From: a virus
DNA: 64,000 bases
Strand: one strand, 5' to 3'
IMG/VR virus record: IMGVR_UViG_3300047325_000130
Span: 1-64,000 of that record
The translations under genes and the position numbers were made by a program. The notes under the pieces were generated by a model that was not told the origin of the DNA, made no database searches, and saw nothing but the letters and a program-made list of their open reading frames with translations. Position 1 is the first letter of the stretch. Every line of letters starts with the position of its first letter. Of the stretch, positions 1,207 to 49,738 are shown in pieces.

Positions 1207-3969
1207 CTAAGCAGTTATTGACTCCATTTCTATAGTTTCTTCCTTAACTGGTGTCACAATATATTCAAAAGATAATTTATTATCTTCAACATGAATAATT
1301 GCGCCACCGCCATTCTTTAATTGACCAAACAACATTTCCTTACTTAACGGTAATTTGATATGCTTCTGTATTACTCTTGCTAGTGGTCTTGCCCCCATAG
1401 CAGGATCAAATCCTTTTTCAACAAGCCATTTCTTAGCAGCATCATCTAATACCACACTGACAGATTTTTCTGCACTTTGTACGTTCAATTGATTAATATA
1501 CTTGTCAACAATACTGCGCATATTCTCAATGCTTAGTTTATTGAACTTAATTACATCGTCAAGTCTATTACGGAACTCGGGTGCAAAGTGCATATTAACA
1601 GCCTCGCCTGATTGATTCTCTTTGATTTCTCGACCAAAACCAATACCAGCTTTCTCAGAAGCGGCAGCACCGAGATTCGAAGTAAGAATCAAAATGACAT
1701 TTTTAGCGCTGATTGATTTGCCGTCACTATTAGTGATTTTGCCATAATCCATAATCTGCAGAAGAATATTGTAGATTGACGGATGGGCTTTTTCAATTTC
1801 ATCAAGCAATAATACACAATGCGGATGTTGTTCGATTGCATTTACGAGCAAACCAGAACCGGCACCGCCGTTGCTATATCCTACATACCCGGGAGGCGAG
1901 CCAATTAATTTACTAACCGAATGTGCCTCACTATATTCACTACAGTCAAAACGTACGAATCCAATACCTAATGTACTCGCTAATTTTTTACTTAATTCGG
2001 TATTGTGATGAACAAATTTATTACTTGTTTGGTATAAGTGGGTTGGATTAGAAACGGTTAAATCATAAAATAATGTTTCATTACTAATTGAAATGTCAGT
2101 AATTTGATGAATATCGCCGTCTGCATCTTTTACGGTATCACCAACTATTAGTTGGTCCGCAAATATTTCAAGTTTTTTACTATCTTTGATAATTTTGTGC
2201 TTATCGGCGCAGTGTATTGTTTCGTTATTTGAAAATGTAATTAATCTACCATTATCATTTTTAGTGATACCAGCTAATATCGGAGTCCAGTTTGAATTCT
2301 CGTCCTTTATTAAAATTTTTGAATTGATAAATTGTTCCTGACCCGGTTCAAATTTAATTAGTTCATATTCTTGCAATGCATCAAATAATTCGGAGATTGA
2401 AACAGTTGTTTCTATAAGCATGATCGAGTCCTTCTTACATTTTTGAGATCTGTGAGAAAGTATTATCTTATTCAATGCTTCTGGGATCTGAACAGTAATT
2501 TTTTGATCACCTGCCAAGCACTTGCCGCTACCTGTTGGACCAACAAACAAAAAATTACCGATTGGTTTTTCTGGATCGCGAAGACCGCTGCGGCTGATAT
2601 ACATATTGTTTACTAATGCATCAATTGCAACATCTTGACCAAATATTTCTTTCTTAAGAGCTGGCTCCAAATTTGCTAACTTGTCGGTGTCATCCTTGCC
2701 AACCGCATTAACAGGAACTCTTGCTATACGACTAACTTCTTCTTCAATTAGTTTGGCCGTAATTACAGTTTGTCTATCAGCAGACGGTTTAATTGCTTGC
2801 CATGCTGCAACACTATCGATTACGTCAATTGCTTTATCCGGCAAGCAACGATCTTGCACATATCTGGCAGTAAGATCCACTGCGGCATCAATTGCATCTG
2901 GATTATATGTAACGCCATGGAATTTTTCATAATATGGCGCAATACCACGGAGTATTTTCTTACTATCTTCAAGATTTGGTTCAACAATATCAATTTTTTG
3001 AAATCTACGAATAAGTGCTCTATCTTTTTCAATATGCTTACGATACTCCTCATTAGTTGTACTACCAATGCATCGTATCTCGCCCCTGCTCAGAGCAGGC
3101 TTTAACATATTAGCAGCATCAACACCGCCGTTGGCACCGCCAGCATTACCTGCACCCATAATCGAATGAATTTCGTCAATAAACAAAATAACATTTGGTG
3201 TTTTTTGTAAGGCAGTTATGATTTGCTTAACACGTTCTTCAAAGTCACCTCTAAATTTAGTGCCAGCAAGTAAGCTACCGATATCTAAACTATAGATGAT
3301 TTTGTTTAAAAGTTTTTCGGGAACATCGTTATCAACAATACGTTTTGCCAGACCTTCAACAATTATTGTCTTTCCAACGCCAGGGTCGCCTGTCATAATA
3401 ATATTGTTTTTAGTTCTACGGCACAAAATTTGTGCCATTTTTTCTACTTCAATTTCACGACCAATAAGAGGATCAATTTTACCATCTTTTGCTTTAGCAT
3501 TAAGGTTAATGCAGTAGGTATCGAGAATCTCTGCATTAGATTCAGATTCGTTTTCGCCTAATGCAGTATTAATAAGATCATCTCTTTTTGGTCCAAATTT
3601 ATCTAACCAATAGGCAGCGGCAGAATCCGGAGTGCCATAAATTGCTAATAGCAAATCAAGAGATGTAACGTAATCACGCTTATTAAATACTTCTTGGGTC
3701 TTAGCTTTTTTTATAATTGTTTTAAGTAATGAAGTTGCGGCCGGGCGCATACCATAGATTAGTTGTGGATAATTCCCTGGCATATCAAGATATGCAGCAT
3801 TTGCTTCATATAGTTTTTTAAAATCACAATCTGGTATAGAGTTGAATAAGTTTTCAATTGCTGGATCAAGCAAAATAGATGCAAGTAAATGTTCTAATGT
3901 AACAAGTTCATGATTTTTTTGACTAGCAATGTCGTAACTACTTTGTAAAATTTCTTCGAACGTTAACAT
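1207..3969 (-). CDS. clpA: ClpA-type AAA+ unfoldase interrupted by an intein
   Basis: Hsp100/Clp ATPase that unfolds proteins and feeds them to ClpP. A Clp N-domain (about 1-140) is followed by AAA+ D1 with Walker A GDPGVGKT near 193-200 and Walker B VILFIDEIH near 258, then D2 with Walker B LLLDEIEKAH near 718. D2 Walker A is split: GPTGSGK, a 173-residue intein (about 484-656), then T-E-L-S. Without the intein the protein is 747 residues, close to cellular ClpA (about 758). There is no ClpB middle coiled coil. An IGF tripeptide in AGIGFG (about residues 774-777) is like the ClpP-docking loop of ClpA/ClpX, so the partner is probably host ClpP. The ATG at 3969 forms TGATG with the def stop and has an AAGGAAA ribosome-binding site. 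Last gene of dnaJ-def-clpA. Confidence 0.93.
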   Translation of the reverse strand: MLTFEEILQSSYDIASQKNHELVTLEHLLASILLDPAIENLFNSIPDCDFKKLYEANAAYLDMPGNYPQLIYGMRPAATSLLKTIIKKAKTQEVFNKRDYVTSLDLLLAIYGTPDSAAAYWLDKFGPKRDDLINTALGENESESNAEILDTYCINLNAKAKDGKIDPLIGREIEVEKMAQILCRRTKNNIIMTGDPGVGKTIIVEGLAKRIVDNDVPEKLLNKIIYSLDIGSLLAGTKFRGDFEERVKQIITALQKTPNVILFIDEIHSIMGAGNAGGANGGVDAANMLKPALSRGEIRCIGSTTNEEYRKHIEKDRALIRRFQKIDIVEPNLEDSKKILRGIAPYYEKFHGVTYNPDAIDAAVDLTARYVQDRCLPDKAIDVIDSVAAWQAIKPSADRQTVITAKLIEEEVSRIARVPVNAVGKDDTDKLANLEPALKKEIFGQDVAIDALVNNMYISRSGLRDPEKPIGNFLFVGPTGSGKCLAGDQKITVQIPEALNKIILSHRSQKCKKDSIMLIETTVSISELFDALQEYELIKFEPGQEQFINSKILIKDENSNWTPILAGITKNDNGRLITFSNNETIHCADKHKIIKDSKKLEIFADQLIVGDTVKDADGDIHQITDISISNETLFYDLTVSNPTHLYQTSNKFVHHNTELSKKLASTLGIGFVRFDCSEYSEAHSVSKLIGSPPGYVGYSNGGAGSGLLVNAIEQHPHCVLLLDEIEKAHPSIYNILLQIMDYGKITNSDGKSISAKNVILILTSNLGAAASEKAGIGFGREIKENQSGEAVNMHFAPEFRNRLDDVIKFNKLSIENMRSIVDKYINQLNVQSAEKSVSVVLDDAAKKWLVEKGFDPAMGARPLARVIQKHIKLPLSKEMLFGQLKNGGGAIIHVEDNKLSFEYIVTPVKEETIEMESITA
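2002..2520 (-). mobile_element. mini-intein in the D2 Walker A motif of clpA
   Basis: The 173-residue insert begins with Cys (CLAGDQKITV, a splicing block A pattern) and ends FVHHN directly before extein Thr, the classic His-Asn end with a +1 Thr nucleophile. Block B-like NNETIHCADKHKI and a block F-like YDLTVSNPTHLY are visible. At this length it has splicing blocks only; I see no LAGLIDADG or HNH endonuclease. It sits between Lys and Thr of the P-loop GPTGSGK/T, so ATP binding in D2 requires splicing. Insertion into an invariant nucleotide-binding motif is typical of inteins. Confidence 0.93.
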
Positions 3970-4460
3970 CACTTTTTCCTTTTTTCGGCCTTAATAAGTT
4001 TCTTTTTAGCCATCATTAAACTAACCGGGCCTGCTCTATCGCTAAACAATATACCGTTAAGATGGTCATATTCATGCATCCATACAGCCGCCACCTCATC
4101 TTCAAGATTATGATTTTCCCTCAAACCGTCCTGATTAATCCAATTAACATTTATCCATTTAGGCCTTGATATTTTTAAGAATAAACCAGGGAAACTCAAA
4201 CAGCCTTCTGGACTTGTACTAGTATCAACACTTGCCATTGATATTTCCGGATTAATGCACGTTATAAACTGTTCGGTACTATTAAGTACAAATAATCTTA
4301 AGTCAATGCCAATTTGTGGTGCAGCAAGACCAACTGCATTATGTTTTCTAACAAATTGATGCATCTCATCAATGATTGGTTTTAATTCATCTAGTTTATC
4401 TAAATCTACATATTCGCACACCTTACGTAGCAAAGGGTCTTTATTACCAATGAGATGCAT
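3969..4460 (-). CDS. def: peptide deformylase
   Basis: Metalloenzyme that removes the N-formyl group from nascent proteins at the ribosome exit. All three family motifs are present in the 163-residue protein: GLAAPQIG (44-51), EGCLS (85-89, with the metal-binding Cys) and HEYDH (129-133, two metal His and the catalytic Glu). Length fits bacterial and phage enzymes (135-170). The start overlaps the dnaJ stop as TAATG and the stop overlaps clpA as TGATG, so the three genes are translationally coupled. Phage deformylases are best known from marine myoviruses, where they are proposed to help maturation of viral or photosystem proteins. Confidence 0.95.
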   Translation of the reverse strand: MHLIGNKDPLLRKVCEYVDLDKLDELKPIIDEMHQFVRKHNAVGLAAPQIGIDLRLFVLNSTEQFITCINPEISMASVDTSTSPEGCLSFPGLFLKISRPKWINVNWINQDGLRENHNLEDEVAAVWMHEYDHLNGILFSDRAGPVSLMMAKKKLIKAEKRKK

Positions 4461-25532: not shown

Positions 25533-28500
25533 ATGGTAAAAATTATTTCTGATGATCCATCGTCGGTATTACAAGTTGAAGGTGCAGTTGAATTAGGTGC
25601 TGCGGCATCAGAAGGTATTCTATTTCCTGATGGTACACGACAAATAACAGCAGCTACCGGTTCCGGTGGCGGTGGTGGTGGCAAAAGCGGTACTGGTCCT
25701 ACTGGTCCAAGAGGTGCACCTGGTCCTACTGGTCCTGCCGGAGGTGGTGGTGGTGGCGGAAGTGGTACTGGTCCTACAGGCCCTACTGGTCCGGGAGGAT
25801 CATTGGGCAATGGCGAAGCTGTTTTAATTCAAACAAGCCCCATATTTAATGATAATAACAATGGTGCAATGAACATTGTTCTTACTCAAACACCAGTTGC
25901 AAACAACATAATTCTTGCTGTAGGTGTTTGTGCGGCTGGCGGGTATATAGATGCACCTACTACATTTACCCAAGTGTCACTCGCGGTTCAACCAAATGGC
26001 TTACAAGTATATGTATGGAAAAGACGTGTAGAAATTGGTGATACTACTAATATTGTAACCTTCGCAGCAAGTCATCAATCACAAGCACAAGCATTTGAAT
26101 ATTCGGGTGTAGGCAACTTTCAAGTTAGTATCGCATCAGGTGTTGATACCATCTCACAAGGAAATGTCGGAGTTGTTTTGCCCGGCTATATTGCTAACGT
26201 AAATCTACCAACAAGACTTGTAAGTATATTTGGACCAAATCTTGATAATGCACAACCACAATTATCAACCGGTTTGGAAGTTTTTACCAAACTTTATCTT
26301 ACACAACTATCCGGATTGTTTTCTATTGCACAAATTGAAAATTTAGATACCATTCCAGCTACTGTATCTTTCAATGGTGTAACATCTGGTGGTAATCTTA
26401 TTAATTCCGCTTACCTATGGAAGATGATAATTGATATCGAACCATATGGTACTTCTCTTACAAGTTTAGGCGATGTTGTTCTCCCCCCTAACCCGGCACC
26501 AGGAAACGTATTAGCATTTGGATCAGATCTCAATTGGCATAGTAAATCTTTATCACTAGAAGATGCTAACGATGTCGTAATAAATGATCTTTCAAATGGT
26601 CAAATACTTGCATGGGATGCATCTACAGGTGTGTGGCATAACGTGCCCCCGGTTGGTGCAACTGGTGCACAAGGTGTTACTGGACCAACAGGCGCACAAG
26701 GTACTGCCGGTCCAATGGGTACCCCGGGATCTGCAACTAATACTGGCGCGACCGGGCCGCAAGGTGTTCAAGGTATAGTAGGACCTACGGGACCTACCGG
26801 TGTAGCAGGTACAGCAGTTAATACAGGTGCAACTGGTCCAACTGGATATACTGGTCCTCAAGGTGTTACAGGTCCTCAAGGTGATGACGGACAACCAGGT
26901 ACCGCAGCAAATACAGGTGCAACAGGACCTACCGGACCACAAGGATTTAGCATAACTGGTCCTACAGGTACACCGGGTACGGCTGTTAATACAGGTTCTA
27001 CAGGTGCTATCGGACCTCAAGGGCCAACCGGTAATACTGGACCAACTGGTGCTGCCGGCGCCGCCGCTAACACAGGTTCTACTGGGCCAACCGGACCACA
27101 AGGAAATACTATAATTGGTCCAACTGGTGCACCCGGAACACCCGGTACAGCAGTTAATACAGGCGCAACTGGTCCAACTGGTGCTCCCGGTCAAAATGGA
27201 TCAACTGGACCACAAGGTATACCTGGTACGGCAACTAATACTGGTGCTCAAGGGCCTACTGGTCCTGCAGGCCAAAATGGTATAAATGGTCAGAATGGCG
27301 CTCAAGGGCCTACTGGGTTGCCTGGAACAGCAACTAATACTGGTGCTACAGGAGCAACCGGTCCGCAAGGATTAATTGGGCCAACCGGAGCTACAGGTAT
27401 TCCCGGTACGGCTGTTAATACAGGTGCTACTGGACCAACCGGACCGCTTGGCATACAAGGTAACACAGGACCTGCATCTACAGTAACTGGGCCAACTGGT
27501 ATTCAAGGTGCAACAGGACCTACAGGTACCCAAGGTATACCGGGATATGCAACTAATACCGGTGCGACTGGCCCTACAGGTCTGCAAGGCATTCAGGGAA
27601 ATACTGGACCAACTGGTATTCCCGGTATTGCAACTAATACTGGCGCAACTGGTCCAATAGGCAATACAGGTCCTACTGGTTATACTGGGCCTCTTGGGCC
27701 AACAGGCTTTATCGGAGAAACTGGTGATCGCGGACCAACTGGGTATACCGGTCCAACAGGTGTGCCGGGATCTGCAACTAATACTGGTGCTACCGGTCCT
27801 GTTGGTTCACAAGGTCCTACCGGTTATACCGGTGCCACTGGTGCAGGAGCTACCGGGCCGCAAGGAAATACTGGTCCGACTGGCGTTACAGGACCTCAAG
27901 GTATTGTTGGTGGTATAGGGCAAACCGGTGCAACTGGACCTCAAGGCGCAACTGGTGCAACGGGTTCAGCAGGAACAAATGGTGTTACTGGGCCAACTGG
28001 TGTAGCTGGTACGGCTGTTAATACAGGCGCTACTGGACCAATTGGACGTACCGGTGCTACCGGTGCTGCATCAATAGTAACAGGGCCAACAGGTGTTACA
28101 GGAGCTACTGGACCACAGGGCATTCAAGGTCCTGTTGGTATAGGTATTACTGGTGCGCAAGGATCTCAAGGTGCAACTGGTCCAACTGGTTATAATGGAT
28201 CAGATGGAGCCACAGGTCCTACAGGTGTCCCAGGATCTGCAACTAATACTGGTGCTACCGGGGCAACAGGTGCTACTGGCGCAGCAGGAACAAATGGATA
28301 TACTGGTCCAACTGGTGCGCAAGGTACTCCGGGATCTGCAACTAATACTGGGGCTACTGGCCCTACTGGAACGGCAGGTCAAACTGGAGCCACAGGTCCT
28401 ACAGGTGTCGGGGCTACTGGCGTAACGGGCCCGGCGGGATCACAAGGTACTGCTGGTGTAACAGGTGCAACTGGTCCAACGGGTGTTGCTGGTATTGCAA

Positions 28501-31500
28501 CTAATACCGGTGCAACTGGACCTCAAGGCGCAACTGGTGCAACGGGTTCAGCAGGAACAAATGGTGTTACTGGGCCAACTGGTGTAGCTGGTACGGCTGT
28601 TAATACAGGCGCTACTGGACCTCAAGGCGACATCGGACCTACTGGTACTCAAGGTCCAACTGGGGTCACCGGAGCAGCGTCGACAATAACTGGTCCAACT
28701 GGGGTCACCGGTCCGACAGGTAATGATGGATCTGCAACTAATACAGGTGCGACAGGTCCGCAAGGCGATATCGGGCCAACCGGAGTTACAGGTCCAACTG
28801 GTTCAGCAGGTACCGCAGCAAATACCGGTGCAACTGGGCCAACTGGTGTTACAGGTCCTACGGGAATCGGTGCTACAGGAGCAACTGGCGCACAAAGTAC
28901 AGTTACTGGTCCTACTGGTTATACAGGACCATCTGGGGTACAAGGTCCTACAGGACAAGCCGGAACATTGGGTGTCACGGGTCCTACTGGGTTGCCTGGT
29001 CAAAATGGTATCTTATTAAGTAATGTTCAAATACAAACATTAACAGGTGACGGATCAACTACTACATTTACAATGCCATTCACTCCAGCAAGTGCTAACA
29101 ATCTGTTAGTTGATATTGACGGCCTTGCACAAACTGCAAATGTTGCATTTACTACAAATGCTAATTCGATCACCTTTGCTTCTGCCCCGGCATTAAATTC
29201 AAACATTGCAATAACAAATCTAGTATTAGGCGATGCTGAATCTAATTTTATCGAAGTTCAAGCAAATAACGTTGTTCTTACAAATAACTTATCGGTATTA
29301 AATTTTAGGGATGGTTTCTCAGTAACCAATACAAATGGCGATATAATAATTGATTCATTGGGATCAGGTGGTATATTATATGAACCTGGTATTCCTCTTA
29401 TTAATGCAACATTAGGTACAATTTATAGTAGAACCGATGCTACACCTGGTGCGAGAGTATTTGTTGCTCAATCCGGCGGAACTGCTCCTTTATCTACACT
29501 ACAACAAACAGATGGAGCAGTTCATCTTTACTTGTTAAATGATTCAACTTCTACTGCGGTTGATATAGGAAGTAGTCCTGCTAACGGTACATATGTTAAC
29601 AATTACATACAACATTATCCATCTGTTGTAAAAGATGAAGATTATTGTACATATATGAATAATGGATATGTTGTATTACCATTCTCTAATCCTCCAGTTA
29701 ATGCAACTACCGGTGCATTCACATTTGAATTTGTTTTTAATGCAAATGTATTAGCAAATTCATTTATACTTAACAGTTCTCACACTGACACAACTGGAAC
29801 TGGGTTTAGACTGTATACGAGTGGTTCTTATATAGGTTTCAATCCTGTATTTACAGGCGCGCCGGGCTTCCAGCAACTTGGTGCAAATTATAACGTTAAT
29901 ACTACCTACCATCTGGCAATAACATATGACGGATCTTATTGCAAATTTTATCTAAATGGTATTATGATGCAAGAGGTTCCAATTACTGGTACATTAACCG
30001 GCGGCACCTCTGATATTGGGTTTGGTACTGGTGATACTGTCGGTGTTGGCAATTATCCATTTTATGCGTATGTTCAAAATTTAGCATTTTATAATGTTGC
30101 TTTAACAGCAACACAAGTTAGTAATCACGCGGAATCAGTGACTGAGGCTGGTACACAATGGCAGCCAGTATCATCAATTGATTTACAAATTAATGGTTCT
30201 GATCAAGGTCAAGTAACTGCAATTAATTTCATCGGTACATCTAATATATCAGTATTAGACGGTATTGCTAATGTATCTATAGGAAGCGGTGGTGCCGGTG
30301 CTGCTAATATAACTGTTTCGTCTAACGGAAATGTTCTCACGAATTCAGTTAAAACATTGGATTTCATAAATGGTTTTGATGTTACGACAGACGGCTCAGG
30401 CAATGTTTTTATAAACGCAACGTCGGTTGGAAATTATCAATCACCTGTTACATTAGATGTAAGTGCAAATAGTGGGCAGACTATAGGAAACGGTTTTACA
30501 ACGGTAGGTTTACCAAACGTTAATACTGATACTAATAATGGTTGGAACACTTCTACAAATCTATATACAATTCCGATAACTGGTACATATTTAATTATAT
30601 CTAAATTACGTTTTACAGATGGTGTAACAAGCGGTGTCAGTTATGGTCAAGGTGTAAACAATAATAACAATATAGATGGTTCTTGGTTTCAATGGTTTGA
30701 AACCAATCCGGAAAGAAACGGCAGTCTTAATGTAAGAGTTCTTTATTGCACTGCTGGCGAACAAATTAATATGTATGCATATTCAAATGATTCATTTGAA
30801 ATTTCAGCTGCTGAATTAAACATATTATTAATAGCTTCGTCAGCCGGACTATCAAACATAACAATTGAATCAAATAATAATGTTATTGGATACGCAAATA
30901 CATTTAATTTTGGAAGTGGGTTCAATGTAACAGTTTCAAATAATATTGTAAACGTTAATAGCATCGGCGGCAGTAGCATCGGCTGCGCCGGCGGTGGTAT
31001 TCTAGCAAGCAATAACTTTATCGTTAAACAGCCCAAGGTCGTACAGACCGCGAGCGCCCGTATACTTTCAAATACCCCTACTTGTACTTTTCCAGCAGCT
31101 ACCACTCCGGGTAACATGGTTGTTTGCTTGATTATGTGTGCTAGTGATACCGCTGTATGGAGTCCATATGGCTTTACGGTAGACTATTCAGGAATAGCTG
31201 CTGGTGCTAGTAGTGGCGGCTACTATACGGGTCTGCCGACCTACGCCCAAAATATGTATTTAGGTCACTCCTTTGTTACCAGTACAAATACTCTAATGAG
31301 TGTATCTTCAAATGGTGGGTTTAGTGACTGCGGTTTGATGATTATTGCAGAAGTTGAAAACGCCGTTGGGTTGGATTTCGATGTATTTGCATTTTCATCT
31401 ACTTCTGCTAACACGGCTAGTATAACGGCCGTTGCTAATTCCTATCAGGGCATCGGTGGCGATATTATCATTGGGGCAGAATGGGATACTGCTGTTGCTG

Positions 31501-34500
31501 GAGCTATTTCCACTACAGCTACCAATGCGGTTAATACTATCTACGACGTACCTTCAGGGTCATCCGGAAATCACTTTGGTGTGAGTGCGTATACTACGTT
31601 GCAAGCCGCACAATCTATTCCCATTACTGTAACCACGAACAGTAACGTAGAAGCGCCGTATATGGTAGTGGTAAAGCCTATTCCTGGTTATGGTACTTTA
31701 TCAATAACCCCTACCGGTTTATATAACAGACCTTCTTTGTCTAGTTTTACTTGGTTAAATCAAGGAACGGCTACCGCTGTTGATCATAGCGGAGGTCCGC
31801 TATCTATTCTTGCCCCCTCCGTAGCAGGTCCAAGCTCCAACTACCGCCTATTAATACAACCTATACCCGGCACAATTTTTAGCTTGATTGCAGAAATTGG
31901 GAGTGAGTCTCCCAATATAAGCTATAACGTTAATGGTATTTATATTTATGACTCTAATTCAGGTAAACTCGCGGGCTTAGAATATATTAGAAATGCTGGC
32001 GAGTTTACTATAGAGTATTTAAATAGTGCTACAAGTTATAACTCAGCACCAGCTTCTTTGCTATACAGCAACCAGGAATCATTTTGGTACAAAATTAACT
32101 GTGATGGTACCAATTTGACTTATTGGGTTAGTTCTGATGGTTGGGATTGGTTATTGCTGTATACTTCTTCTATGACAGCTTTTCTACCCGCTATTACGCA
32201 CGTTGGTTTTGGTGGTGATCCTTTTGCTAGCTCTAGTACCTTTGCGCAAGCAAACTATAAACTAAAAAATTGGTCGTTAGCTGCTACGGCAGATCAACCT
32301 AATTATACCCCACCTGTTCCTGGAATTGGCAGCCCGACGAAACTAAATATTCTTCAAAGCCTTGACTTTACTACGGCTACTAGCAATCGCGTACAGGATA
32401 GCGTTCAAAATAACAACGCCTTCATTGTGAACTGGAGTAATAGTGCGCAAACCAGTCTAGGTTACACCACTGATGGTTCAAGTATGTATATTGACCCTGG
32501 TCCGGTCGTAATGGGGCGTTATTTCTTTACAGTAGCTATTCGGTTTAAGACAACTAGCACGACTACCGGTTCCTCCTATTACCAGGATCCCTCGCTTTAT
32601 AACCTCGCCTTGAATGGCTCGGGCTATGATGGTGGGATTACAATTCATAATGGTTATATTGCACACTGGGCTTCACCGGGGGGTGCAGAAGTTAACACTG
32701 ATTTTAGTGCTGTATCTAATATTCTCGTAAATGACGGTAATTTTCATACGGTGGTTTGGATTTGGGATGGCACCAACATCCGGTTGTACATAGATGGAGT
32801 TAATGCAGGGGTTGATTATACTGGAGGTATTACTCTTTGTTATGGCAATCGTCCTGGCTCTGAAGTCGGTTGCAATCCGTGGATGGGCCGTGTTAATCAA
32901 AACGATTTTTCTACTGCAACTGCTGGCGGATTAGCGGCTACTTTTGCTCAGTTAAGAATTTATGATCATGCTTTAAGCCCGGCTGATATCACTAAACTTA
33001 ATCTAACGGTGCCTGCCAATCAACAAAGCTATCTTCCTTCGGCTAATAATGGTAGTGCTGGGATTATTTATGAAGGTACTTCTTATACCACTATTGCAGC
33101 AGGAAATAATGTTACGATTACCCCAAGTGGTGGTACTCTGACGATTAGTTCTACCGGAAGCGGTGGCGGCGGCGGTGGCGGTGGTGGCGGATCAGGTGGT
33201 ATTAGTACTTACTCTGCAGGCTCAAGTGTATCTAAAAGTATTACGGCTGCTACTTCATGGAATCCCGTACCCGATTTAGCTATTACAATTCAGGGTACAG
33301 GAGTTATTCAAAACTTTTTACTGTCATATTCTATTGAGCATAATGGTTCACACGCTAATTTCTTTGGCGTAAGTTTAGATGGTACTGTGGTATACCCACA
33401 AGAATTTGCAAGTAGCGAATATACATTTGTTTCAAATCTTACTTCTGACAGCATGTATGCTTTTGCTCGTAATTCGTTGCCTATTCAAATTCCTGCAGAT
33501 AACGCATCGCATACCGTTAAAATTATAACACAGGTTGCAGATACTGTTTCAAACTACACAATTTTTGAACATTTTATGTCGATGATCTCCTTATTACCAT
33601 CGACAGGAAGTACTTCAGGTACCCCTGTTGTATTTGGAGTTTATCAATCCACAGGTCAAAATATTCCTGCCCAAACCTTTACCAAAGTACTATTGGATAC
33701 AAAGGAATTTGACAACACTAGCTCTTTTAATCTAGCTAATTCAAGATTTCAGCCTAATGTAGCAGGCTATTACCAAATAAATGGTGCGGTAAATTACCCT
33801 TCCTCTGATTCAAATACTCTAGCTACTATCTATAAAAATGGCTCTGAATTTAAGCGAGGTAGCCAAGCTAATGGAACTTATGGTCAGATTGTATCTGCTT
33901 TAGTTTATCTAAATGGCTCAACTGACTACTTGGAACTTTGGACCTACAATGGCAGTGGTGATATTGCACAACCAACGGCCGAACAAACCTATTTTAATGG
34001 GGCATTGCAGGTATCTGGCTCCTCCATTACGTATGGTAATAGTTCAGTAACTTCTATCGTAGCGGGCAACAATACAGAACTATCTTTAACTAATGGTGCT
34101 TTAACAATTAACAGCACCGGATCCGAATCGTTGTTGATTACAAACGGAACAACAAATATTGTTAATCCTGTTACATTAGAATTTACTGGTGCATCTATAC
34201 TTACAGAAGGCATGTTTCCGAGCACTGTAGCTCCGTCATATGTTCAATCAAATACAGGCGGCGGTGATAGCATATCCTCAGGATCAGCTGTAACCATTGG
34301 CAATATTATTGTTGTATCATTTTTAAGTTTAGGTAATATTACTGGTGTAACGGTATCAGATAATCTTGGCAGCGTTTATACATCAGTCGCACAAATTTCA
34401 GAGCAGTCTAATAATTTTAATGTATTTGTCGGAAAAGTTGCTGCATCTGGCATTATAACAATCAGTGTAGCAGGCGGTCCAAATAATTACGATAGAATAG

Positions 34501-37500
34501 CGTTTATGGAGGTGGCAGGTGCCACCTCCATAGTTAATGCTACAGCATCACTATATGGCAACAGTTCGCCGGAATCATTATCAATTACAACTACACAAGA
34601 AAATTGTTTCCTTGTAGCATTGGTAGGCGGCTATCATAATAATAGCAGCTTTTCATTTAATTCACCATTTATATTAACAACTGAATCAAATGGTAGTGAT
34701 GGAAATGGTATAGGTTACGCATCTGCAAATGCTGCAGGAACATATACTCTAACTGCAAACATAGTCGGCAATTCAGATAACTGGCCAATAATAATTATTG
34801 CACTTGAAAATCCTACAACTGTTTCGGCTGTAATTAATATACCCGGTGTGCAGTATAATGGCAATCTTATAACTTCTATCACAAATGGATCTGGTATAGA
34901 TTTATCTATATCAAATAGCAATCTTACCATTAATACAACAAGTTCATTTAACGTAAATGTTAGTTCTTTAACAACTACAGTCAACGACTTAGTAATCGGT
35001 AACGGTATAGAGGCAAACATTGTAGAAACCGTTGCATCATCGCCTATTATTATTCAATCAAACGGTGGGTCAAACACAACATTAACCTTTGCATCATCGC
35101 CTACTATTAGTAACTATGCACTATTCATTGTTTTCTGGGTCCCTGGGGTAGCAGCTAGCGCTCCTGCACCGTCTGCAGGATTAACATTAATTGGTACTGC
35201 TACTATACCAGGAGGACAAGCAAATGTGTATGGCGGAGTAATAACTTCTAATTCAACATCAGCATTATCTGTAAATTACAACGGGTCTGGTTCATGTTTT
35301 GAAATAGAGAATGTAAGAAATGTTACAACTCCAACTGCTGATAATTGGACACAAACAGGCAGTTCGCCGGCGTACACATTAAGTTTTACCATTCCTACAA
35401 ATACACAAAATTCAATAGTGTTCTTTATCGGCGAACTTTATAATGGTAGTCAAGCAGGCAATACTCCTACTATAACAAATCTTCTTCCAATCGGAAGCAC
35501 AATTGATTATAATATATATAACAATTCAAACGAATGCTATCAACAAGGACATACTCCGGTATTAACGAATACCGAAAATGTTATTATTAGTATGATAGAA
35601 AATAATGATATTATGGGTGCAAGCCGGCCGGGAATTATTTACTTTATGGTTGAAGGTGTCACAGTATCAAAAACTGATCTAGAAATTTCTGTACCTTATA
35701 TGACTGCAGAGCAATCAGGTAATTTGTTAGGGTCATTCACAACATTAAACTTAGGAAATCAGTTAACTGGTGCTGTAAATGGTAATGTATTAACGGTTTC
35801 CGGATCTAATCTAACATTAACCGATGGTGTTTTTGATATTGTTAATCCGTCAATACTAACTGTTAAAAACTTAAATCTATCATCTACCTTTATACCAAAA
35901 ACAATTTCAATCGTGCAATCTGCAGGATTGCCATATGGTAGCAGTTCAAGCGGAAGTGTTACATTAGGAACTATTCCTACCGAAAATAATTTGGTTATTA
36001 TGTCGTATATGGGATCTGGTGCGTTTAGTGGATTCTTAGGTACATTACAAGTATCTGGTAGTGATTACGGAATATATACCTGGATAGCCGACGGCGTAAC
36101 AAACCCAACAGCATATGTATCCGGTAGCAATAATGGCGTTATAGCTATAGTAGAAATAGCAAATGCTGGTATAATATCTACTACATCTGGTACAAATACC
36201 AGCTTAGCAGGCGGATCATTGGGTTATGAAAATAATTTCACATTACCTACAACTACATTAGCAAATTCGTTTGTATTATGGTTAGACGGTTTTGCAGAAC
36301 CCGGATTCAATGAAAATGCAACTTCTAATTTATCAAATTCAACTTTGCTTTCTGTAAACGGGCCAGGTAATTATACGGTATTCTCAGCAGGATGTGGATA
36401 TACTAATACAGCCGGTAGTACTGTATTAACACTTTCAACCCAACAAAATGTGACAGGTAATCCGTTTGCTGCAATCGTAATTCAACCTGCATATACTACA
36501 TCATCTGATGTATCAATCGAACCAAATATACCAATTTTACAAAGTGGTAATGTTATTGGTAATGCAACGACATTTGGTACAGGGTACGGTCTTACTGCTA
36601 ATGTGACAAATGGTATTGCTACATTTGCAACCGATCTTCCGACATTAATGGTAACTGACGGCGTTTCAATTCTACCAGATATAACAACTATAAAAGTACA
36701 AAATTTAAATTTAGAGAGTATTGGTACATTACCAGAGATTGTTCAATTAACTGGTGCATCAACCGGAATGTTAACACTTCCATCGACTGCGACAATAGGT
36801 AATTACTTAGTAATTATTATCGCATCTGGTGTTGGCTCAAGTATGCCATCTGTTCCGGCAGCATATCAAAATTTAACGGAATTTGATAATAATTCTCAGG
36901 GAGTATCAATTGCAATATTTGGTGGTATAATTACAGATGATAATACATCAGTTGATTTAGGATCAAATTCTGATTACAGTGCTTCGATATACGAAATTTC
37001 TAATGTAAGTGCAGTTTATGCAACTTCTGGTAACCCGCTATATTCAAACGGCGGATATTCGTTCCCATCTTCAAATTTTACTATGCCCGGTATAGCAATA
37101 TTTGCAACACATATTGCCGGCGGAACGTCGGTATCAAACATAATACCGACCGGCGCAATATCGGATGGATCATGGTTTAATTCGCACTCTAATCAGGAGG
37201 CTTTTCATACCGGAGGAATTACTGGCGGAATTGTAACATTAGGTTATACCGGCAATAACCCAGAAAATATTAATGCGTATGCGCAAATTTCAATTTTTGG
37301 TACATCTGGTGGCGGAGTTCAATTAACTGCACCAAGCTTGTCATTTAATAGTAATGTTTTTCAAAATGTAACAAATATTAACTTTGTAAGTCCCGTTGCG
37401 AATACAGTAGTTATGGAAGGCGGTAATGTAACTGTTAACTTGCCGGCTCCTTTGGCATTTGCTGGGAAATATTCGTCTGACCTTGGGCCAAATGGAGCAA

Positions 37501-38846
37501 ACACTCGAGCAATTGGCACAACCTACACAAACACTACAAGTTCAGCCATTTTTGTTTCTGTTATAGTTAACAATGGTGGTACTATCGGCACCGGCGCCCA
37601 AGTTTCAATAAACGGTGTCGCAATACCGATGCTATGGCAAAGCGAAATAAATTCACCAACATATCGCGGCTCTTTGGTATTTCTGGTTGATCCAAACGAT
37701 GAATATAAAGTTGATGTCGCAGCTGGTTATCCTTCGGGCGTAGTTGTCGAGTCTTGGAGCGAACGCCCTATCTCCAACGGCCTAACCCAGGGCGGTGCAA
37801 TTGAACTTGTTAGCGTGCAAAATATAACCAACGAAGGATCGATTATATTCCCAATTGAGCCCGGATATGATTATAAAATAGTTGGGCATGGTGTAAGTGC
37901 AAGTACAACAAATGTGTTGGCCGTACAAATGGGCAATGGCTCGCCGGTAACATGGGATTCTTCATCTAATTATTACTGGCAAAATACTTCAGCAGGAGGA
38001 TCAGACGGTGGTGGCCCTACCGGAAGTATTGTAATTTCTGGTGCATTTGCTTCTGGGGCCAGTGCTGCTATCTCATTAGACTTCACTGGTTTAAACACCA
38101 ATGCTACTGGCGGATATGACGTTATTATGGATGGTATCTTTTCATTCCAGAGTCATAAAATCACAGGGTATTATAACTGTTCGGTAGGTAGCACGTCAGC
38201 CATACAACTTTATGTATCTGCTGGCACAATCAGCGGCAACTTCTACCTCTATCGCCGCTCGCTTACAAATGTTGTAGCTGGTAATAATTCACCTTACACA
38301 ATGCCTTTATTGGGCAATAATTTCACAATCGCCAATCAACCAGCAGGTGCGACCGCAGCAAACAGTTCGACCGGAATTTCGATGTTTACCCCAACGAACG
38401 GTAGGGCGCTGCTTGCACTTTTAGACAATACTGCGGTTGGTGCGACGGCTACTATTGAGTTAGGAATTAATTTTCAAAATGCCAATAATGATGCAATCAT
38501 GGGACTATATTTAATTGACAGCGACAACAAAGTAATAATTTTTGGTCCAGATAGTAACCCGACTGTAAATTCTTTAGGTCTTGTGGCATATTGGGATGGG
38601 TATTCAAATTATGCTGGAACCATTTCCTTCAGTGCGGGCTCTTACACCGCGCCAACTTTTTTAAAAATTGTGTATAATGGAACTTCGCTAAGTTTTTATG
38701 CCGGTAATGATCTTAACGCAATGCTTCCATTACATACGGAGTCGTCTACCGCGTATCTCGGTACAATTATCGGTTGTGGTATTTTTCAAGAGGCTGAAAG
38801 CGGACCAATTGCCGGTACTGCATTTCATTATAACCATACAAGTTAA
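25533..38846 (+). CDS. giant collagen-like multidomain tail fibre/adhesin, 4437 residues
   Basis: One frame of 13.3 kb. Approximate order: short N-terminal peptide with [16 protein letters not shown] (shared with 13205); Gly-rich linkers; first adhesin domain (95-290); collagen-like Gly-Pro-Thr/Gly-Ala-Thr region (372-1159); LamG-like domain (1322-1532); C1q-like domain (1632-1769); a second LamG-type pair (2052-2492); a poly-Gly hinge; another C1q-like domain (2696-2829); four diverged adhesin modules of about 230 residues (2869-3922); and a tip domain (3969-4437). No Cys-rich or enzymatic motif. It probably trimerises through the collagen-like shaft and displays several carbohydrate-binding heads. 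Segments encoding about 1815-2865 and the tip look compositionally different from the rest. Confidence 0.85.
27924..28039 (+). repeat. 116-bp exact direct repeat in the collagen-like region, copy 1
   Basis: Identical to 28506-28621, 582 bases further on (194 codons, in frame). This suggests expansion of the shaft by recombination between repeats. Confidence 0.92.
28506..28621 (+). repeat. 116-bp exact direct repeat in the collagen-like region, copy 2
   Basis: Second copy of the repeat at 27924-28039. Recombination between the copies would shorten the shaft by 194 residues while keeping the frame. Confidence 0.92.
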
Positions 38847-48352: not shown

Positions 48353-49738
48353 TTATACTTGATTAGATCTGGCTCTAACTTCTGCAAAGGTGTGGTCGAC
48401 AAGCAATTCGCCGTTCTTCCAAACCGGCTGCAAGATATCTGCTGCACCGTTCATATCTTCGATCTTGACAGTCTCATACTTATCGTTTTTGCGGATTAAT
48501 GCAAGACGACCCTTTTTGCTGGTCTTACCAGGATCAGTAATCGGGTTCTTAAAGATATCCCGCCATTCACCTTCAATACAAATTGCACTTGCCTTCTGAG
48601 CAAATCTTAGAGTATCTCGATTTACCATTTGGGTAAGTCCGCCGCCCATACCGAGAGCAAGGTTATCGGTAGAGTAGCCCGCATCGTTTAGGTTTTTTAA
48701 AATTACCGGAATGCTTTCTGCTGTAATACCATCACCTTGGATACAACGAACATGGTTAAGTACTTTGTAACCTTTCTTGTTTACAACAGATCCAAACTTG
48801 GCATCTAGTTTGGTAATAACCTCTGTCGGGACAGTATTTGGATCGCCGGAGTCTGGACGTACAACAAGAAGTGCGCCGCTTTCAACAATCTCGGTCTTCA
48901 AACGCTCGCCCCAAATATAATCAATAGCATTCCAAAGGTCGTATGTATCAGACACACATGCTAGCAATGCACCAGGTTTTGCGAATTGATTTAGCATGTT
49001 TTTAAATGCATCAAATTCGCCGTTTCGGCCATAGCTACTAATTGTGCTATGTTCGGAAGCTGGGATAGAAAATCCAGGCATCTCTCCGCCATAGAAGTTC
49101 ATTGCGTACAACAAACCTTCAACAGTATCAGATCCCATGAAGTTTACTAAATGTGCTGCACCACCGATTCCTGCAGACTCGCTACTGGAAACACCACGAG
49201 CACTAAAATCGTGAAGTTTGAAGGCAATCTGCCCTTCTGGATCATCACTGGTTAGCTGCAAACTTTTCATTATCGCTTGTTTGCAAGTCCAACTATTGGT
49301 TGCAACCGTAGTTGGAAACCATACTGCACGCAAAATTGCAGTTTCCATAAAGCTCACTAACCAAGCAAATCCTGGTTCGGTATTAGTGATTTGTACTAAT
49401 ACATTATGACCCGGTATAATAGTACCTTCGGGTACTGCTGTAATAAGCAATGGTAGCTTACCGTTAAGACGTACTGCAATATCCATCCAGCCATCGTAGT
49501 CGAAAATACCCGGACCCATATGACTATCGACAATAAGTTTTGCTTCTTCAACGTCGGCGACCGTAATCGGTGCCATACCTTTTAAAAACATCTGCAGGCC
49601 AAAGAATACAGTGCGGTCCCATTTGCCGCCTCGACTTTCAATATAAGCGGATAGATATTCGGACTTGTTAGGGTACTGCTTGTGATGAGAATATTTGTAA
49701 GAATCTGTCTTCAGAATTGTGTTCTTTAAATTATACAT
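48353..49738 (-). CDS. nadV: nicotinamide phosphoribosyltransferase (NadV/NAMPT)
   Basis: 461 residues. Converts nicotinamide plus PRPP to NMN. Type II phosphoribosyltransferase features are clear: an N-terminal NTILKTDSYKYSHHKQYP, YIESRGGKWDRTVFFG, the HDFSARGVSSSESAGIGGAAH core with the GVSSSESA substrate loop, SIPASEHST, VRPDSGDP binding the PRPP phosphates, and LGMGGGLTQ. Length matches NAMPT (460-490). It follows nadM by 40 bases in the same direction, making a complete two-step route from nicotinamide to NAD+. Confidence 0.96.
   Translation of the reverse strand: MYNLKNTILKTDSYKYSHHKQYPNKSEYLSAYIESRGGKWDRTVFFGLQMFLKGMAPITVADVEEAKLIVDSHMGPGIFDYDGWMDIAVRLNGKLPLLITAVPEGTIIPGHNVLVQITNTEPGFAWLVSFMETAILRAVWFPTTVATNSWTCKQAIMKSLQLTSDDPEGQIAFKLHDFSARGVSSSESAGIGGAAHLVNFMGSDTVEGLLYAMNFYGGEMPGFSIPASEHSTISSYGRNGEFDAFKNMLNQFAKPGALLACVSDTYDLWNAIDYIWGERLKTEIVESGALLVVRPDSGDPNTVPTEVITKLDAKFGSVVNKKGYKVLNHVRCIQGDGITAESIPVILKNLNDAGYSTDNLALGMGGGLTQMVNRDTLRFAQKASAICIEGEWRDIFKNPITDPGKTSKKGRLALIRKNDKYETVKIEDMNGAADILQPVWKNGELLVDHTFAEVRARSNQV

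What the first reader, a model, noticed from the sequence alone, without database searches (positions are those of the whole stretch)
2002..2520. Mini-intein inside the D2 P-loop of a phage ClpA
Seen: GPTGSGK is followed by a Cys-starting, HHN-ending 173-residue insert and then Thr-Glu-Leu. Known: inteins splice with Cys1, block B His, terminal His-Asn and a +1 nucleophile, and often sit in P-loops. Inference: ClpA is inactive until splicing, so host conditions (redox, temperature) could gate the unfoldase. An intein in phage clpA at this exact Lys/Thr position is unusual to my knowledge.
Basis: partly seen in the sequence, partly recalled or inferred. Interest (0 to 1): 0.7.

Follow-up and report, generated by a model that had tools for sequence, protein, structure and literature searches.

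The report
Re-fused split intein in phage ClpA
A phage protein-unfolding motor carries a self-removing protein insert in its second ATP-binding loop, and its closest relatives in other phages are cut into two genes at the same point, so this copy looks like two halves that have joined up again.

Summary
The ClpA reading frame 3972-1207 (minus strand, 921 aa) carries a 173-aa insert at 2520-2002, between Lys and Thr of the D2 Walker A motif (GPTGSGK|T). It begins with Cys, ends HHN and is followed by Thr. It is an intein: the predicted fold matches intein structures along its whole length, and the splicing residues are present. Pfam's intein model stays below its cut-off.

The new part is its kinship. 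Four distinct relatives at the same site (45-48% identical) and two more distant ones at the D1 P-loop are naturally split inteins: an N-piece of 24-30 aa, a stop, then a C-piece with its own ribosome-binding site and ATG. The spacer is about 1.1-1.5 kb with an endonuclease-like gene, or only 116 or 33 nt. The window's copy is contiguous. Its only in-frame ATG, preceded by AAGGA, lies where the C-pieces start, and the model is disordered just there. I read it as a split intein that lost its endonuclease and fused again. The trees do not settle this direction.

Split inteins turned out to be common in P-loops of uncultured phages' Clp ATPases. Two phages encode Clp in three pieces. Nothing supports redox or temperature gating.

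The parts
1207..3972 (-). clpA-like gene, 921 codons plus stop, intein included
2521..3972 (-). N-extein: N-domain, D1 (GDPGVGKT uninterrupted) and the start of D2 up to GPTGSGK
2002..2520 (-). intein, 173 aa, no homing endonuclease
1207..2001 (-). C-extein: rest of D2 from Thr+1 (TELSKKLA) with stop codon
2488..2520 (-). block A, CLAGDQKITVQ, Cys1 nucleophile
   Evidence: sequence; matches the IntN pieces of relatives; block names recalled
2443..2520 (-). stretch equivalent to the separate IntN piece of relatives (codons 1-26)
   Evidence: IntN is 26, 26, 28, 26, 24 and 30 aa in L010, L014, L022, L050, L129, L143
2422..2442 (-). linker codons 27-33 (KCKKDSI) at the split point; model disordered at residues 25-32
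2429..2433 (-). AAGGA, Shine-Dalgarno-like, 7 nt before the ATG
   Evidence: pairing as strong at 11 of 198 in-frame internal ATGs
2419..2421 (-). ATG, codon 34, the only in-frame ATG of the intein; lies one codon before the IntC start codons of relatives in the alignment
2002..2421 (-). stretch equivalent to the separate IntC piece (140 aa)
2188..2223 (-). block B region, IHCADKHKII, His108 kept, the usual Thr replaced by Ala as in the relatives
2029..2073 (-). block F, LFYDLTVSNPTHLYQ
1999..2019 (-). block G, KFVHHN and Thr+1
3969..4460 (-). peptide deformylase gene, upstream neighbour
   Evidence: deformylase also precedes the Clp gene in phage Phosso
4460..5320 (-). DnaJ-like gene, next upstream neighbour
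   Evidence: reading of the sequence; the PHROG families hit have no named function; dnaJ also precedes clpA in phages Atu_ph07 and Callisto

Best explanation
The insert is a class 1 mini-intein (Cys1, terminal Asn, Thr+1) that separates the catalytic Lys from the Thr of the D2 Walker A motif of a phage ClpA. The 102-kDa precursor cannot have a working D2 site until the intein cuts itself out and ligates the flanks to an 82-kDa ClpA. The intein most likely descends from an atypically split intein: an ancestor had a short IntN gene piece, a spacer with a freestanding homing endonuclease gene, and an IntC gene piece with its own ribosome-binding site. The endonuclease was lost, the spacer shrank, and the two pieces came into one frame again, leaving a 7-codon linker that still holds AAGGA and the old start codon. 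Shown by computation: site, residues, predicted fold, split relatives with the same break, relic-like ATG. Inferred: splicing, ATPase inactivity of the precursor, direction of the change.
For: Exact insertion at GPTGSGK|T. Profile of four family members finds PDB inteins: 7 of the 8 listed hits, best gp41-1 at E 0.0032. Model pLDDT 81, pTM 0.74; the only stretch under 50 is residues 25-32. Foldseek's best 50 are inteins or intein-like domains, best E 9.2e-7; VIA-align Z up to 16.9, rmsd 2.5 over 150 residues. Six relatives (L010, L014, L022, L050 at D2; L129, L143 at D1) are all split at the homologous place, IntN 24-30 aa, IntC from a start codon with a purine-rich site upstream (AGGAG, AAGAGG, AAAGGG, AAAGGA, AAGGAG, AAGGAG), spacers 116, 33, 1186, 1168, 1066, 1548 nt. 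L022, L050, L129 and L143 spacers hold endonuclease-like ORFs; that of L022 matches that of L017 at E 3e-12. The window's only intein ATG lies at the IntC start with AAGGA 7 nt before it; pairing this strong occurs at 11 of 198 in-frame internal ATGs of the genes I took in the window, and ATG is 1.2% of codons. Since all six relatives, outgroups included, are split, a single change on the window's branch is the shortest account.
Against: The trees do not fix the direction: keeping the four split D2 rows as a clade without the window is not rejected (p-AU 0.368 with 17 rows; 0.436 with 7 rows). Exteins of the four split lineages form a clade (100/99) without the window, whose extein is nearest to intein-less phage Phosso, so the intein history is not a simple copy of the gene's history. 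The window's linker DNA does not align with the L014 spacer better than shuffled linker (442 of 2000 shuffles reach the score). Pfam Intein_splicing matches only at 17.1-18.9 bits against a cut-off of 35.8 and found nothing in the genome search. Block B lacks the usual Thr.
Confidence: 0.62

Rival explanations
1. The intein has always been contiguous; split relatives arose from such a form, and the AAGGA-ATG is chance.
For: The intein tree does not reject a split clade without the window; contiguous inteins exist in a distant relative at a P-loop, the large terminase of Klebsiella phages (159 aa, about 26% identical), and in L015 at the same Clp site (173 aa, no ATG near the split point).
Against: Both outgroup rows nearest to the family (L129, L143) are split at the same place, so at least two separate splits at one place would be needed. 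The only ATG of the intein falls at the IntC start with a Shine-Dalgarno-like site.
Confidence: 0.25
2. The internal site is still used: the gene makes the contiguous precursor and also a separate IntC-C-extein protein of 404 residues, so cis and trans products coexist.
For: AAGGA with a 7-nt spacer and ATG; duplex energy -5.4, as strong at only 9 of the 33 gene starts I took and close to the split relatives' starts (-5.3 to -7.3).
Against: No expression data; no separate IntN piece exists, so the short product would have no partner except a cleaved or stalled precursor.
Confidence: 0.13
3. The window's copy is really split, and a base error in the metagenome assembly hides a stop codon in the linker.
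For: Codons 26-30 (CAA AAA TGT AAG AAG) are each one substitution from a stop (reading), and a stop is expected there from the relatives.
Against: No sign of an error; the frame is open over all 33 codons before the ATG. Reads are not available here.
Confidence: 0.08
4. The intein is a sensor that gates ClpA by redox state or temperature.
For: P-loop inteins with conditional splicing are described (RadA, PMC5790916, abstract start and passages seen).
Against: Cys28 and Cys104 are not conserved in the four nearest relatives; nothing in the sequence points to a sensor.
Confidence: 0.06

Closest known systems
Atypically split inteins (AceL-TerL, VidaL, PolB16 OarG type)
   Same: Short IntN, long IntC; print gives IntN of about 15-25 aa (PMC12707363, first part of the introduction read; PMC10189870, passages). 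The split relatives have IntN of 24-30 aa. VidaL is among the best structure matches.
   Different: The window's copy is contiguous. In its family the break lies before the helix that holds the LPIxxLF motif, whereas in the second group of Clp split inteins it lies after the corresponding motif. I recall the latter as the AceL-TerL place; not checked.
Fractured genes with split inteins and an EDxHD/Vsr-type homing endonuclease (Dassa 2009; paper not held; known through PMC12350094 passages)
   Same: In L022, L050, L129 and L143 a freestanding endonuclease-like ORF sits between the two intein halves.
   Different: Host gene is a Clp ATPase; the window has no endonuclease (nothing found, without a positive control) and no break. 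The endonuclease assignment of L022 and L050 rests on similarity to L017 and reading, as Pfam gave no match.
P-loop Lys|Thr mini-inteins (TerL1-a of mycobacteriophages, RadA of Pyrococcus horikoshii)
   Same: Same kind of place in the Walker A motif (PMC5050341 and PMC5790916, passages); RadA intein is among the top fold matches.
   Different: Different host protein; low sequence identity (14-17%).
TerL intein of Klebsiella Taipeivirus phages (AB797215)
   Same: Nearest annotated-phage relative by sequence, 25.9% over residues 16-173, E about 1e-5; also inside a GK|T motif.
   Different: Contiguous, 159 aa; the distance from Cys1 to the EEL/SEL helix motif is about 20 residues shorter than in the window.

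Membership tests
Class 1 intein (mini-intein) | Cys or Ser as first residue at the N-terminal splice junction | tested here: met
   Cys1 directly after GPTGSGK; Cys1 in all six split relatives
Class 1 intein (mini-intein) | Block B His | tested here: met
   His108, invariant in A3. The usual Thr three residues before is Ala here and in the relatives
Class 1 intein (mini-intein) | Penultimate His and C-terminal Asn, followed by Cys/Ser/Thr | tested here: met
   HHN|T; H172 and N173 invariant in A3
Class 1 intein (mini-intein) | HINT fold | tested here: met
   Predicted model only: pLDDT 81, Z up to 16.9 with inteins
Class 1 intein (mini-intein) | In-frame within a conserved host protein that is complete without it | tested here: met
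   Intein-less Clp of phage Phosso runs through this site as FKGPTGVGKTEVAK
Class 1 intein (mini-intein) | No homing endonuclease domain (mini-intein) | tested here: met
   173 aa, aligned to intein structures from residue 1 to 173
Class 1 intein (mini-intein) | Self-excision with ligation of the exteins | not testable with these tools
   needs expression
Atypically split intein | IntN and IntC encoded as separate polypeptides | tested here: not met
   Window: one open frame. So it is not filed as a split intein; relatives meet it
Atypically split intein | Break 15-30 residues after the first residue, with own start for IntC | tested here: inconclusive
   AAGGA-ATG at codon 34, use not shown

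The most novel reading that the evidence does not exclude
This is a natural split intein that has fused again and closed its homing cycle (split with endonuclease, endonuclease lost, spacer shrunk, re-fusion), and its internal start is still alive, so one gene yields a cis-splicing precursor and a free IntC half at once.
Probability: 0.13. Interest if true: 0.72.

Novelty: new variant of a known kind. Interest (0 to 1): 0.55.

Why it matters
Split inteins are usually treated as an end state (my understanding). A family in which one insertion site shows the whole series, from a 1.2-kb spacer with endonuclease through 116 and 33 nt to an in-frame fusion, would let the homing cycle of split inteins be tested directly. 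The family also supplies new short-IntN inteins for protein chemistry, with the P-loop as native context, and suggests that phage Clp unfoldases can depend on one or two trans-splicing events before they can work.

Tried and rejected
Family models: Pfam and NCBIfam give no match over cut-off for the insert, PHROGs none at E below 0.1, phmmer of the single sequence against PDB only noise; the profile of four sequences was needed. The single insert sequence found no locus in viral contigs. A Tudor_RapA match (E 0.008, under cut-off) covers about 29 residues and I set it aside. DNA alignment of the window's linker with the L014 spacer: not better than shuffles. Trees: the intein tree puts the window with L010 and L014 at 88/81 but with a long branch, and the AU tests do not decide. 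In A2 MAFFT placed the ends of the short IntN rows wrongly, so I dropped the four IntN rows before folding (A3). Extein tree: L002-L009, L056, L058, L060 and L061 dropped out because my pattern for the D2 P-loop did not match them; 16 rows stayed. Of the 6 genome contigs matches only L042 is a Clp; the rest are chance or other ATPases by reading. Of the 25 loci added by the wider D2 pattern most are chance or other proteins; L076 (same contig as L050), L082 and L094 are Clp D2 by reading. Of 56 D1-pattern stretches I count 19 as Clp D1, by reading of the flanks; BLAST with the window's ClpA was run on four of them. Literature: nine searches of the PMC library listed no paper on an intein in a Clp AAA+ subunit nor on a natural re-fused split intein; this covers open-licence papers only, judged from listings, abstract starts and the passages I opened. 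ClpP inteins are known.

Full report
The window lies in an IMG/VR virus record of 103,636 bases. On its minus strand, 3972-1207, is a 921-codon frame whose product matches ClpA (TIGR02639, E 2.6e-257; phrog_4871, E 3.3e-243). Next to it stand a peptide deformylase and a DnaJ-like gene; deformylase or dnaJ also precede Clp genes in phages Phosso, Atu_ph07 and Callisto. The 173-residue insert occupies 2520-2002, exactly between Lys and Thr of GPTGSGK|T. The D1 P-loop (GDPGVGKT) is intact.

The insert is an intein. It has Cys1, His108 in block B, FYDLTV and THLYQ of block F, HHN at the end and Thr as the next residue (block names are recalled). Pfam's Intein_splicing model sees it only weakly (17.1 bits with flanks, 18.9 bits for its last 140 residues, cut-off 35.8). 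A profile of four family members finds inteins in PDB (gp41-1, Cat, VidaL, PolB16, RadA; E 0.0032 to 0.11). AlphaFold2 with an 8-row alignment of window and locus sequences gives pLDDT 81 and pTM 0.74; the model matches RadA, VidaL and TFIIB inteins (Foldseek E 9e-7 to 2e-6; VIA-align Z 16.9, rmsd 2.5 over 150 residues for the best). The masses are 101.9, 82.4 and 19.6 kDa for precursor, spliced ClpA and intein.

Related loci change the picture. A pattern for FxGPTGxGKC found 30 viral contigs; all 30 encode a Clp relative of the window's N-extein, and in 22 of 30 the frame stops 26-36 residues after the Cys, while 8 run on. For 10 of the 22 the script found the second half, ending in HN, followed by the rest of D2. 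One of six matches in species genomes is a Clp with a contiguous intein, in a Berkelbacteria MAG.

The nearest relatives of the window's intein are L010/L048 (one contig), L014/L049 (one contig), L022/L036 (two contigs, identical over the stretch compared) and L050/L051 (two contigs, identical in the part compared): 45-48% identical over about 140 residues. All are split. IntN is 26, 26, 28 and 26 residues; IntC begins at its own ATG with a ribosome-binding-like site; stop-to-ATG distances are 116, 33, 1186 and 1168 nt. In L022 and L050 the spacer holds an ORF of 360 and 362 aa on the opposite strand without Pfam match; the L022 ORF resembles the spacer ORF of L017 (E 3e-12), and spacer ORFs of L018, L019 and L038 touch the models DUF559 or MTES_1575, only one above cut-off (DUF559 in L038); that these are nuclease-like is recalled. 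Two more distant members sit in the D1 P-loop, L129 (about 38% identical to the window) and L143, again split, IntN 24 and 30 aa, IntC starts preceded by AAGGAG, spacers 1066 and 1548 nt with endonuclease-like ORFs by reading.

In the window the corresponding place is codons 27-33. The DNA there reads ...TGTAAGAAGGACTCGATC-ATG: AAGGA, 7 nt, and the only in-frame ATG of the intein, one codon before the aligned IntC starts. The model is disordered exactly at residues 25-32. Among 198 in-frame internal ATGs of the 33 genes I took in the window, 11 have upstream pairing as strong; ATG is 1.2% of codons. My rough estimate from these two figures that such a pair falls within one codon of the right place is 0.2%.

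Direction of change. All six relatives are split, outgroup rows included, so re-fusion in the window's line needs one change and ancestral continuity needs more. The trees do not prove it: the window falls inside the split group (88/81), yet a split clade without it is not rejected (p-AU 0.368; 0.436). The exteins of the four split lineages form a clade without the window (100/99), and the window's extein is nearest to intein-less Phosso (58% identity), so the intein probably moved between ClpA lineages or was lost in some. The linker shows no nucleotide similarity to the L014 spacer beyond chance. I put re-fusion at about 0.62 and the bare claim of an intein well above 0.9.

How it works, by inference from established intein chemistry: Cys1 attacks the Lys-Cys bond, the chain moves to Thr+1, Asn173 cyclises and the exteins join, restoring GPTGSGK-T. 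Until then the D2 site lacks its continuous Walker A motif. Splicing was not shown here. No sign of conditional control was found.

Wider observation. A pattern for G(D/E)PGxGKC found 56 viral stretches; by reading, 19 are Clp D1 sites, and in all 19 the frame stops 24-42 residues after Cys; two pairs of these share their core sequence. In L018 and L038 both P-loops are interrupted and all three gene pieces are present, so Clp would need two trans-splicing events; the two IntC halves in each phage are 64% and 66% identical (79 of 124 and 82 of 124 positions), which raises the question how wrong joins are avoided.

Literature. Lys|Thr P-loop inteins are classic in phage terminases (PMC5050341, passages). 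Atypically split inteins with IntN of 15-25 aa are known (PMC12707363, first part of the introduction read; PMC10189870, passages). Fractured genes with an EDxHD/Vsr-type endonuclease are known (Dassa 2009, not held; cited in PMC12350094, passages). Jumbo-phage ClpA is known (PMC7824862, passages). I found no paper on inteins in Clp ATPase subunits or on natural re-fusion in nine searches of open-licence papers.

Noticed in passing
L018 (reverse strand) and L038: Clp ATPase encoded in three pieces: split inteins in both the D1 and the D2 P-loop, with IntC halves 64-66% identical to each other within one phage. Looks like obligatory double trans-splicing.
   Followed up: partly
L096, L100, L101, L107, L108, L115, L125, L128, L129, L136, L137, L141, L142, L143, L146 and L012, L018, L034, L038: Nineteen uncultured-phage loci with an apparent IntN of 24-42 aa right after the D1 Walker A Lys of Clp-like proteins; Clp assignment by reading except for four.
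   Followed up: partly
L114, L132, L097, L099, L102, L106, L121: Short Cys-led stretches ending 16-30 aa after GxPGxGK in other ATPases, possibly further split inteins.
   Followed up: no
L051:3006-4358: Frame that looks like an IntC followed by a replicative helicase from SGKS on, so a second split intein close to the split Clp gene.
   Followed up: no
L046 (AB797215.1) CDS 2210-4420: Large terminase of Klebsiella Taipeivirus phages contains a contiguous 159-aa intein-like insert at SGK|T, annotated only as terminase.
   Followed up: partly
L129: A ClpS-like 102-aa ORF lies just upstream of the split clpA (by reading).
   Followed up: no
window 25533-38846: One frame of 4437 codons, not identified.
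   Followed up: no
window 48353-49738: Nicotinamide phosphoribosyltransferase-like gene (phrog_448, E 7.4e-154), NAD salvage in the phage.
   Followed up: no
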